NCBI RefSeq assembly: GCF_031884435.1
Contig: NZ_CP134779.1
Coordinates: 4,402,001 to 4,466,000 of the forward strand
DNA length: 64,000 nucleotides
DNA from: Bosea sp. 685
GTDB lineage: Bacteria; Pseudomonadota; Alphaproteobacteria; Rhizobiales; Beijerinckiaceae
Direction: 5' to 3'
A program made the translations under genes and the position numbers. Below the pieces are notes generated by a model. It was not told the DNA's origin. It was given only the letters and a program-made list of their open reading frames with translations, and ran no database searches. Position 1 is the stretch's first letter, and every line of letters starts with the position of its first letter. Below are positions 35,509 through 61,298 of this stretch, piece by piece.

Positions 35509-35554
35509 ACGCTCTGGAGCCATTTCCGATCGAATTCGCTCGAAAACGCTCTGG
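35509..35554 (-). repeat. GCGTTTTCGAGCG-family repeat fragment
   Basis: Read on the minus strand it begins AGAGCGTTTTCGAGCGAATTC and ends in GGAAATGGCTCCAGAGCG. The same core opens the elements at 52168 and inside the AraC gene (60738). Confidence 0.75.
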
Positions 35555-52167: not shown

Positions 52168-52215
52168 CGCACTTTTTCGGGCGAACCGGTATCCACGTCG
52201 CTCGAAAACGCTTTA
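52168..52215 (-). repeat. GCGTTTTCGAGCGACGTGGATACCGG-family repeat
   Basis: On the minus strand: AAAGCGTTTTCGAGCGACGT, then GGATACCGGTTCGCCCGAAA. It matches the first half of the insertion in the AraC gene at 60738. Confidence 0.8.
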
Positions 52216-60165: not shown

Positions 60166-60210
60166 GGTCAGAGTGGATCAGGGGATTGGGTCAGAGTGGA
60201 TCAGGGGATT
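60166..60210 (+). repeat. Two tandem copies of a 22-bp unit (GGTCAGAGTGGATCAGGGGATT)
   Basis: Copies at 60166-60187 and 60189-60210 are identical, separated by one G. They lie 13 bp upstream of the VOC start, on its promoter side. Confidence 0.9.
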
Positions 60211-60350
60211 GCGCGGCGTTGCAGCCTCAGTGCGAACCTGTCGAGGAAAGGCGCTGGGGCTGCTGCCATCTCCGGGCTCCCGCTGGGCATATCCCTCGAC
60301 GTAGAGCCCCGCCCCTCCCGGCGCTTGGGGAAAATTGCTAAATTGCGGCG

Positions 60351-61298
60351 ATGACTGCGACCTCGCATCTTCTGGCCTCAGGCCCCGGCTGGCGCGTGCG
60401 GGACATCACCTGCACGGCGGGGCCGGGCGACCGCGCCTTCGAAGAACAGCACGCGCATTGCTGCATCGCGGCCGTGACGAGCGGCAGCTTCAGCTACCGC
60501 TCCACCCAGGGCGCCGCGCTGCTCGCACCGGGCGCACTCCTGCTCGGCAATCAGGGCGCCTGCTTCGAATGCGGCCACGACCATGCGGCCGGCGACCGCT
60601 GCCTCGCCTTCCAGTTCGACCCGGCCTATCTGGAAGACATCCTAGCCGGCGTCCCCGGCGTGCGGCGGCTCGCTTTCGCCCGCGCCCATCTGCCGCCCTC
60701 GCCGGCGCTCGCGGGCTTGATGGCCGAGATGGCGACGAGAGCGTTTTCGAGCGGAGTGGATACCGGGTCGCGTGAAGAAAACGCGTCGAAACTAAGGGCA
60801 GGAGCAATAGAACGATCCAGTTCGATCGGAGATTGCTCTAGCGGCGGCAGCACCGCTGCCTATGAGGAACTTGCGGTCCGACTGGCTGGCGCAGTGGCGG
60901 CGACGCTCGCGGATGCACTGCCGCCAACAACCGCGCCGACGGCGCGTGACGCCAGCCGCATCACCCAGGCCCTGCGATGCATCGAGGCGCGCTCCGACGA
61001 GACCCTGAGCCTGACCGAGCTCGCCCGGGAAGCCGCGATGAGCCGCTATCATTTCCTGCGGACATTCAAGGCGCTGATCGGCATGACGCCGCATCAGTTC
61101 CTGCTCAGGACACGCCTGCATCGCTCCGCGCTCCTGCTGCGTGGCTCGGAGCATGGCGTCGCGCAGATCGCCTTCGATTGCGGCTTCGGCGATCTCTCGA
61201 CCTTCAACCGCCATTTCCGTCTGGCAATGGGCAAAAGCCCCAGCGCCTATCGCACGAGCCGGGACCGCGCCGCCTCAATATGCTGTCTTGGCACGTAA
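60351..61298 (+). CDS. AraC family transcriptional regulator with an in-frame repeat insertion
   Basis: 315 residues. The C-terminal double HTH is intact (LSLTELAREAAMSRYHFLRT, FKALIGMTPHQFLLRTRLHR, VAQIAFDCGFGDLSTFNRHF). The N-terminal ~125 residues form a cupin-like sensing domain (AHCCIAAVTSGSFSYRST). Residues about 130-163 (SSGVDTGSREENASKL and on) do not look like family sequence and are encoded by a copy of the GCGTTTTCGAGCG repeat (60738-60840), 34 codons long and in frame. The insert falls in the linker between domains, so the protein may still work. Start ATG 60351 has no strong ribosome site. Confidence 0.87.
   Translation: MTATSHLLASGPGWRVRDITCTAGPGDRAFEEQHAHCCIAAVTSGSFSYRSTQGAALLAPGALLLGNQGACFECGHDHAAGDRCLAFQFDPAYLEDILAGVPGVRRLAFARAHLPPSPALAGLMAEMATRAFSSGVDTGSREENASKLRAGAIERSSSIGDCSSGGSTAAYEELAVRLAGAVAATLADALPPTTAPTARDASRITQALRCIEARSDETLSLTELAREAAMSRYHFLRTFKALIGMTPHQFLLRTRLHRSALLLRGSEHGVAQIAFDCGFGDLSTFNRHFRLAMGKSPSAYRTSRDRAASICCLGT
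60738..60840 (+). repeat. GCGTTTTCGAGCG-family repeat inserted within the AraC coding sequence
   Basis: It begins AGAGCGTTTTCGAGCGGAGT, GGATACCGGGTCGCGTGAAG and contains AAAACGCG as partial inverse; the right part is a second hairpin GAGCAATAGAACGATC / GATCGGAGATTGCTC. About 102 bp, a multiple of three, without a stop in the AraC frame. Related copies are intergenic (35509, 52168). Confidence 0.85.

What the first reader, a model, noticed from the sequence alone, without database searches (positions are those of the whole stretch)
60738..60840. Dispersed palindromic repeat inserted in frame into an AraC regulator
A 102-bp (34-codon) copy of a repeat otherwise found in gaps lies in the linker between the sensing and DNA-binding domains of the AraC protein. 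The host frame stays open, both flanking domains look intact, and the left half matches intergenic copies at 35509 and 52168. It shows that this repeat family moves or has moved, and that it can create new linker peptide.
Basis: partly seen in the sequence, partly recalled or inferred. Interest (0 to 1): 0.72.

Follow-up and report, generated by a model that had tools for sequence, protein, structure and literature searches.

The report
Mobile hairpin repeat translated inside proteins
A short hairpin-forming repeat, scattered in well over a hundred places of this Bosea genome, has landed inside a regulator gene without breaking its reading frame, adding 34 amino acids, and copies of the same repeat sit in frame inside several unrelated proteins of related bacteria.

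Summary
Confirmed. Bases 60738-60839 (102 bp, residues 130-163 of a 315-aa AraC regulator) are a full copy of a two-hairpin repeat with at least 39 other near-full copies in this genome (137 left-module hits). The AraC orthologue was found in 19 of 67 Bosea genomes; only this one and B. psychrotolerans carry the insert, and seven orthologues read base by base show clean empty sites. AlphaFold2 leaves most of the insert disordered between two modelled domains.

It is not isolated. Two subfamilies (102- and 126-bp cores) exchange loops at fixed sites. Of 90 copies fetched from four Bosea genomes, at least 7, in 4 gene families (AraC, PhnD-like, GlcE-like, an oxidoreductase), lie in frame inside genes. 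Database proteins carry the peptide inside ImuB, AlaRS and a GNAT.

It works like Rickettsia palindromic elements but in Hyphomicrobiales; the mosaic build recalls rhizobial RIME (sequence not compared). Openness of the frames needs no special design. The mobilising enzyme is unknown; RAYT was tested and not supported. My searches of the held library found no report of it.

The parts
60351..61298 (+). Host gene: AraC-family regulator, 315 aa including the insert
   Evidence: ORF; Pfam; model with AraC-family neighbours
60738..60839 (+). Inserted repeat copy, 102-bp core AGAGCG...GCTCT, residues 130-163, short subfamily
   Evidence: Absent with clean join in 7 aligned orthologues; repeat copies
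60741..60784 (+). Left hairpin module
   Evidence: Consensus fold and pair counts, columns 4-47 of A1
60799..60841 (+). Right hairpin module (last two bases AG shared with the target)
   Evidence: Columns 62-104 of A1; empty site
60423..60743 (+). AraC_binding (cupin-like) domain
   Evidence: PF02311 residues 25-131
61020..61256 (+). AraC-type helix-turn-helix domain
   Evidence: PF12833 residues 224-302
52173..52212 (-). Partial intergenic relative: left module followed by another hairpin
35514..35552 (-). Mini-copy made of the two ends

Best explanation
The segment is one copy of a non-autonomous two-hairpin mosaic repeat that multiplied in one Bosea clade. Shown: the copy was inserted into a pre-existing AraC gene; its 102-bp core is a multiple of three, open in the frame used, and sits in a short loop of naturally variable length, so both domains remain. 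It is best read as one insertion shared by this genome, B. psychrotolerans and a metagenomic relative, with the left loop later exchanged between the two subfamilies. The same repeat has entered other unrelated genes in frame. Inferred: it moves with an enzyme supplied in trans (not identified); insertions into genes are mostly removed by selection, and those in an open frame and a tolerant loop persist as nearly neutral disordered peptide; loop exchange is gene conversion between dispersed copies; intergenic copies at gene 3' ends may act as hairpins on transcripts.
For: Empty sites: clean joins in 7 aligned orthologues; 17 of 19 Bosea orthologues lack it. Family; left-module hits in 48 of 67 Bosea genomes, G000 137, G001 112, G008 207, G020 120, G013 262, next outgroup G006 1. 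Second gene: PhnD-like PF12974 protein, insert in G000 and G008, 102-bp gap in G001 and G020. Further hosts: GlcE-like L224/P0004 and an oxidoreductase in the opposite repeat orientation in G008 and G020; database ImuB, AlaRS and GNAT proteins. One AraC insertion: P0003 is closest to G000 outside the insert (92.2%; 86.7% to G001) yet has the long loop; the G000/G001 insert pair ranks 2nd of 660 short-long pairs in shared rare letters; insert dS 0.35 equals flank dS 0.34. Loop exchange: 2 of 13 orthologous pairs (11 sites) differ in loop type. Tolerance: residues 139-165 have pLDDT below 50 while 10-residue blocks give 93-98 for most of the C-terminal domain and 65-93 for the N-terminal domain; variable loop; flank dN/dS 0.19 for G000-G001 against 0.16 for the insert-free pair G008-G020.
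Against: The pattern (G000 and G001 with, G008 and G020 without) fits neither the rpo nor the AraC-region tree; AU tests reject G000+G001 as a clade (p 2.8e-5 and 6e-4), and four informative sites 31-67 bases upstream group G000 with G008. Loss, recombination or incomplete sorting must be invoked. The rank is narrow (score 9.45 against 8.98 for the next, non-orthologous pair), and by plain identity the pair ranks only 586 of 660. No consistent target-site duplication: at the PhnD-like site the junction bases differ. No mobilising gene was found. The in-gene count rests on a crude coding screen. Whether the regulator works with the insert is untested.
Confidence: 0.83

Rival explanations
1. Two independent insertions, of a short and of a long subfamily member, hit the same base of AraC in the same orientation (a target hotspot).
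For: The inserts belong to different subfamilies, 68% identical over the long copy; flank phylogeny does not unite the two species; identity of the shared columns ranks 586 of 660.
Against: P0003, nearest to G000, carries the long loop; shared rare letters rank 2 of 660; loop exchange also seen at another fixed site, L029/L225.
Confidence: 0.1
2. The AraC gene of this genome is a decaying gene that happens still to be open.
For: Insert dN/dS is 0.18/0.35 over 33 codons, near-relaxed; the C-terminal tail differs between species.
Against: Flank dN/dS is 0.19, close to the insert-free pair's 0.16; both domains score above cut-off; frame kept in three inserts of two lengths.
Confidence: 0.08
3. 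The inserted peptide has been domesticated and changes what the regulator or the other host proteins do.
For: The ImuB peptide is found in 5 of 20 loci fetched from one genus and in four database proteins, so it persists.
Against: Modelled as disordered; low constraint inside the AraC insert; presence is patchy.
Confidence: 0.12
4. The repeat is a REP moved by the RAYT-like (Y1) transposases of this clade.
For: Y1_Tnp is found in 6 of 67 Bosea genomes, four of them the high-copy species G000, G001, G008 and G020.
Against: G013 (262 hits) and G055 (65) gave no Y1_Tnp match; the other two carriers, G059 and G061, have 0 left-module hits; no copy of the element was detected in the nine fetched RAYT loci with 1.5 kb flanks; ends read CTAG, not GTAG or CGTC.
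Confidence: 0.07

Closest known systems
Rickettsia palindromic elements (RPE) and the Wolbachia protein-coding palindromes
   Same: Palindromic repeats of about 100-150 bp in many copies, a part of them in frame in unrelated genes, encoding a recurrent peptide (RPE passages read in PMC10969869, and PMC3733652; the Ogata papers seen only as citations).
   Different: Other order, GC-rich genomes; most fetched copies are intergenic; two-hairpin mosaic with exchangeable loops and right halves. RPE sequences were not compared here.
RIME, Rhizobium-specific intergenic mosaic elements (Osteras 1995; not held; known from citing passages, and recall)
   Same: Mosaic of palindromes between genes in the same order; a Sinorhizobium fredii plasmid carries the left module at 88.5% over 43% of the query.
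   Different: RIME is described as intergenic; the sequence comparison with RIME1/RIME2 could not be made.
MITEs, and enterobacterial RU/ERIC-type small mobile sequences with open frames found inside genes (PMC2759123, start of abstract seen in the listing)
   Same: Small, non-autonomous, inverted terminal bases AGAGC...GCTCT, open frames, occasionally intragenic.
   Different: No target-site duplication or parent insertion sequence found here.
REP elements / RAYT (GTAG and CGTC families, PMC3733652, passages read)
   Same: Palindromic, enriched at gene 3' ends by my crude gene calls.
   Different: Ends CTAG; longer; no linked RAYT.

Membership tests
RPE-like protein-coding palindromic elements (as a kind) | Dispersed palindromic repeat of roughly 100-150 bp | tested here: met
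   29 of 30 best copies are 104 bp; two-hairpin consensus fold, z -8.7 and -8.9; 95.3% of paired cells standard
RPE-like protein-coding palindromic elements (as a kind) | In-frame insertion in several unrelated genes with empty orthologues | tested here: met
   Empty sites for AraC and PhnD-like; other hosts in frame without a base-level empty site for GlcE-like and the oxidoreductase
Rickettsia RPE (by descent) | Sequence homology to an RPE family | not tested
   No RPE sequence was fetched
RIME | Sequence match to RIME1 or RIME2 | not testable with these tools
   Paper not held; Rfam gave no family for the window
RIME | Mosaic of palindromic modules between genes | tested here: met
   Left module with several different right hairpins in 2 x 400 kb
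MITE | Terminal inverted repeats | tested here: met
   AGAGC...GCTCT ends in the consensus of both subfamilies
MITE | Target-site duplication | tested here: inconclusive
   AraC, PhnD-like and one intergenic empty site give net 102, 102 and 101 bp without a consistent duplication
REP/RAYT | GTAG or CGTC tag at the hairpin foot | tested here: not met
   Consensus ends read CTAG
REP/RAYT | Association with a RAYT gene | tested here: not met
   No copy detected by nhmmer (E up to 10) in nine RAYT loci; high-copy G013 without a Y1_Tnp match

The most novel reading that the evidence does not exclude
Hyphomicrobiales carry an order-wide class of protein-coding palindromic elements, independent of those of Rickettsiales, which repeatedly adds a 19- to 42-residue disordered peptide (KAFSSEVDTGSREENASKQ...) to unrelated proteins, essential ones included, and whose loops keep being rewritten in place by exchange between genomic copies: new protein segments arise by transposition and then diversify by gene conversion.
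Probability: 0.45. Interest if true: 0.75.

Novelty: new variant of a known kind. Interest (0 to 1): 0.62.

Why it matters
In-frame palindromic repeats in genes are known as a feature of Rickettsia ('a unique but recurrent feature', title of Ogata 2002, seen as a citation) and Wolbachia (title cited). Here the same thing appears in Bosea and other Hyphomicrobiales, with many sequenced relatives and both occupied and empty alleles in close species. Whether such insertions are neutral, how they move, and whether selfish repeats supply new protein linkers become testable. It also warns annotators that KAFSSEVDTGSREENASKQ-like stretches are repeat-derived and not conserved domains.

Tried and rejected
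RAYT as mobiliser: a clade correlation only, not supported. Independent double insertion in AraC: favoured by me, then lowered because. Selection for codability: each subfamily consensus has 2 of 6 frames open, and 2000 dinucleotide shuffles average 1.85 and 1.92, so openness is no sign of a coding design; both cores being multiples of three has a chance of 1 in 9. Rfam: no family in the window at gathering threshold. Terminator role of intergenic copies: suggested by position, but the simple scan of one locus, L018, found none. One search used a misaligned structure string of mine and its counts are void; one search replaces it. The coding screens missed the PhnD-like case, so 7 of 90 is a lower bound; they look for in-frame cases, so 'all in frame' is partly built in. 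One search flagged two copies as 'frame differs' (L232, L257); on inspection they lie between genes. The strand bias was not tied to replichores. An autonomous partner was looked for only through module pairing in 800 kb. On re-checking for this filing I added the adverse identity rank (586 of 660) and lowered the main confidence from 0.85 to 0.83 and raised the two-insertion rival from 0.07 to 0.10.

Full report
OBSERVATION. The AraC ORF is 60351-61298 (+), 315 aa, with AraC_binding (residues 25-131) and HTH_18 (224-302) above cut-off. Residues 130-163 (60738-60839) are the insert. The window's genome (G000, 6.8 Mb; window = C2:4402001-4466000) gave 43 matches, 40 near full length including the AraC copy itself, the other 39 at 81-89% identity, with 40 of 207 candidates scored. 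A 31-base left-module pattern with up to 3 mismatches hits 137 places, 39 forward and 98 reverse, control 0. The window copies at 52173-52212 and 35514-35552 are partial.

ANATOMY. The 30 best copies align end to end; consensus AGAGCGTTTTCGAGCGAAGTGGATACCGGTTCGCGTGAAGAAAACGCGTTAAAACAAAGAGCTAGAGCAATTGAACGATCCAATTGGATCGGAAATTGCTCTAG. 29 of 30 are 104 bp; 25 of 30 are open in the frame used in AraC and 27 of 30 in one frame of the other strand. Two hairpins form (z -8.9 and -8.7 for the two strands); 95.3% of cells are standard pairs, and 4 pairs change on both sides against 1.4 in shuffles, reached by 8 of 500 (related copies can mimic this). In 400 kb of G000 and 400 kb of the syntenic part of G020 the left module is joined to several different right hairpins, stands alone, or is followed by another left module: a mosaic. 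A longer subfamily (126-bp core, 24 more bases in the left loop) occurs in all four genomes searched.

EMPTY SITES. In the 67-genome Bosea search 19 hold a match at E up to 1e-30; G000 and G001 match straight through the insert, the other 17 in two pieces that break at it. Seven (G008, G020, G006, G007, G003, G014, G005) were aligned base by base and join cleanly. In 13 aligned orthologues, distant ones included, the site is a loop of variable length and only the window and B. psychrotolerans carry the insert.

HISTORY OF THE AraC INSERT. G000 has the short form; G001 has the long loop and lacks one flanking codon. Trees of the gene, the region and rpo do not unite G000 with G001 (AU p 2.8e-5 for rpo, 6e-4 for the region); in the gene 5 informative sites favour G000+G001, 10 favour G000+G008 and 4 favour G000+G020, and the four nearest upstream sites favour G000+G008. 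Three results still favour one insertion. First, a metagenomic AraC, P0003, closest to G000 outside the insert (92.2%; G020 90.4%, G008 88.1%, G001 86.7%, over 270 columns), carries the long loop. Second, the G000/G001 pair is 2nd of 660 short-long pairs in shared rare letters, the orthologous pair L029/L225 being first; but the lead over the third pair is small (9.45 against 8.98), and by plain identity the pair is 586th. Third, loop type also differs at the fixed site L029/L225, so 2 of 13 orthologous pairs (11 sites) are swapped (of 14 listed pairs L016-L255 was judged paralogous and dropped). The four species are close to a star, and the PhnD-like insert has the conflicting pattern G000+G008, so recombination, incomplete sorting or losses must have acted.

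OTHER GENES. (a) A PhnD-like protein (PF12974, P0005): 26 of 67 Bosea genomes match at E up to 1e-20, G000 and G008 straight through; of seven genes aligned, these two carry the insert and five (G001, G020, G076, G043, G013) do not, with a gap of 102 bp in G001 and G020. (b) A GlcE-like FAD-binding protein of B. psychrotolerans (P0004, L224), long form. (c) A FAD/NAD(P) oxidoreductase in G008 and G020 (L258, L245), repeat in the opposite orientation. With AraC that makes 7 of 90 fetched copies in 4 gene families. The 90 were best matches to three queries in four genomes, partly orthologous to each other, not a random sample, and the screen is crude. Since most of a bacterial chromosome is coding (general knowledge, not measured here), copies inside genes look strongly depleted. 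(d) Protein-database searches limited to the repeat-encoded region gave 1 protein of 20 candidates, itself, 3 of 5 and 17 of 36 at E up to 1. The peptide is internal in AraC, GlcE-like, PhnD-like, ImuB (four proteins, two with a second diverged copy), AlaRS (residue 501, within the tRNA_SAD match) and a GNAT; near the N-terminus in P0006, P0010, P0011, P0014, P0017 and P0019; near the C-terminus in P0007, P0016 and P0018. Eleven of the 17 hits have E above 0.01, though each shows the peptide; N-terminal cases may be wrongly annotated starts. (e) In one other genus of the order (that of G101, unnamed), 78 of 79 genomes match ImuB; of the 20 loci fetched, 5 carry the peptide (L281, L283, L284, L287, L288), 3 carry a different insertion in the same loop (L289, L293, L294), and 12 lack the peptide.

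DISTRIBUTION. Left-module hits in 48 of 67 Bosea genomes: G013 262, G008 207, G000 137, G020 120, G001 112, G055 65; G006 has 1. In 150 genomes of the order, 14 including the own one have hits, in 8 of 90 genera. Plasmid records: 7 with a match (Bradyrhizobium 4, Bosea, Xanthobacter, Sinorhizobium 1 each).

FUNCTION AND CONSTRAINT. Flank dN and dS are 0.064 and 0.339 for G000-G001 and 0.043 and 0.263 for the insert-free pair G008-G020; in the insert 0.18 and 0.35 over 33 codons. The AlphaFold2 model (13 sequences) has mean pLDDT 83.5 with residues 139-165 below 50 and AraC-family structures as best PDB matches. By crude gene of 30 copies have their right end within 20 bp of a gene's 3' end; a role on transcripts is possible but not shown.

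WHAT IS KNOWN. Searches covered the held library; (pieces of the DNA and the peptide word) returned no paper. Passages only were read of PMC2573895, PMC10969869, PMC1525189, PMC2267715, PMC2873474 and PMC3733652; PMC2759123 was seen in a listing. RIME and the Ogata papers are known here from citing passages and recall (the two papers looked up are not held). I file this as RPE-like in kind, possibly RIME-like in build, and claim descent from neither.

Noticed in passing
G000 chromosome, 137 left-module places: Strong strand imbalance, 39 forward and 98 reverse (binomial p 5e-7); G020 has 79/41 and G055 13/52. Not explained.
   Followed up: partly
L002, L003, L006, L007, L010, L018, L019, L020, L023, L026, L027: The right end of the repeat lies within about 20 bp of a neighbouring gene's 3' end (11 of 30 copies, crude gene calls); in L003, L006, L018 and L020 the element's CTAG seems to supply the TAG stop.
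   Followed up: partly
L269-L272, L275-L277: RAYT-like Y1 transposases are present in the four closest Bosea genomes (and in two others, L273, L274); in G020 one full and two truncated copies stand in a row.
   Followed up: partly
L289, L293, L294: The ImuB loop that takes this repeat in some genomes holds a different repeat-like in-frame insertion in others; L289 begins with what looks like a relic of the same peptide. A landing site for several families?
   Followed up: no
P0013: An alanyl-tRNA synthetase carries the repeat peptide inside its tRNA_SAD match, just before CGGTHV.
   Followed up: no
G013: Highest left-module count of the genus (262) but no Y1_Tnp match: the best genome in which to look for the mobiliser.
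   Followed up: no
window 60166-60211: Tandem duplication of 23 bp (ggtcagagtggatcaggggattg) in the gap upstream of araC (read).
   Followed up: no
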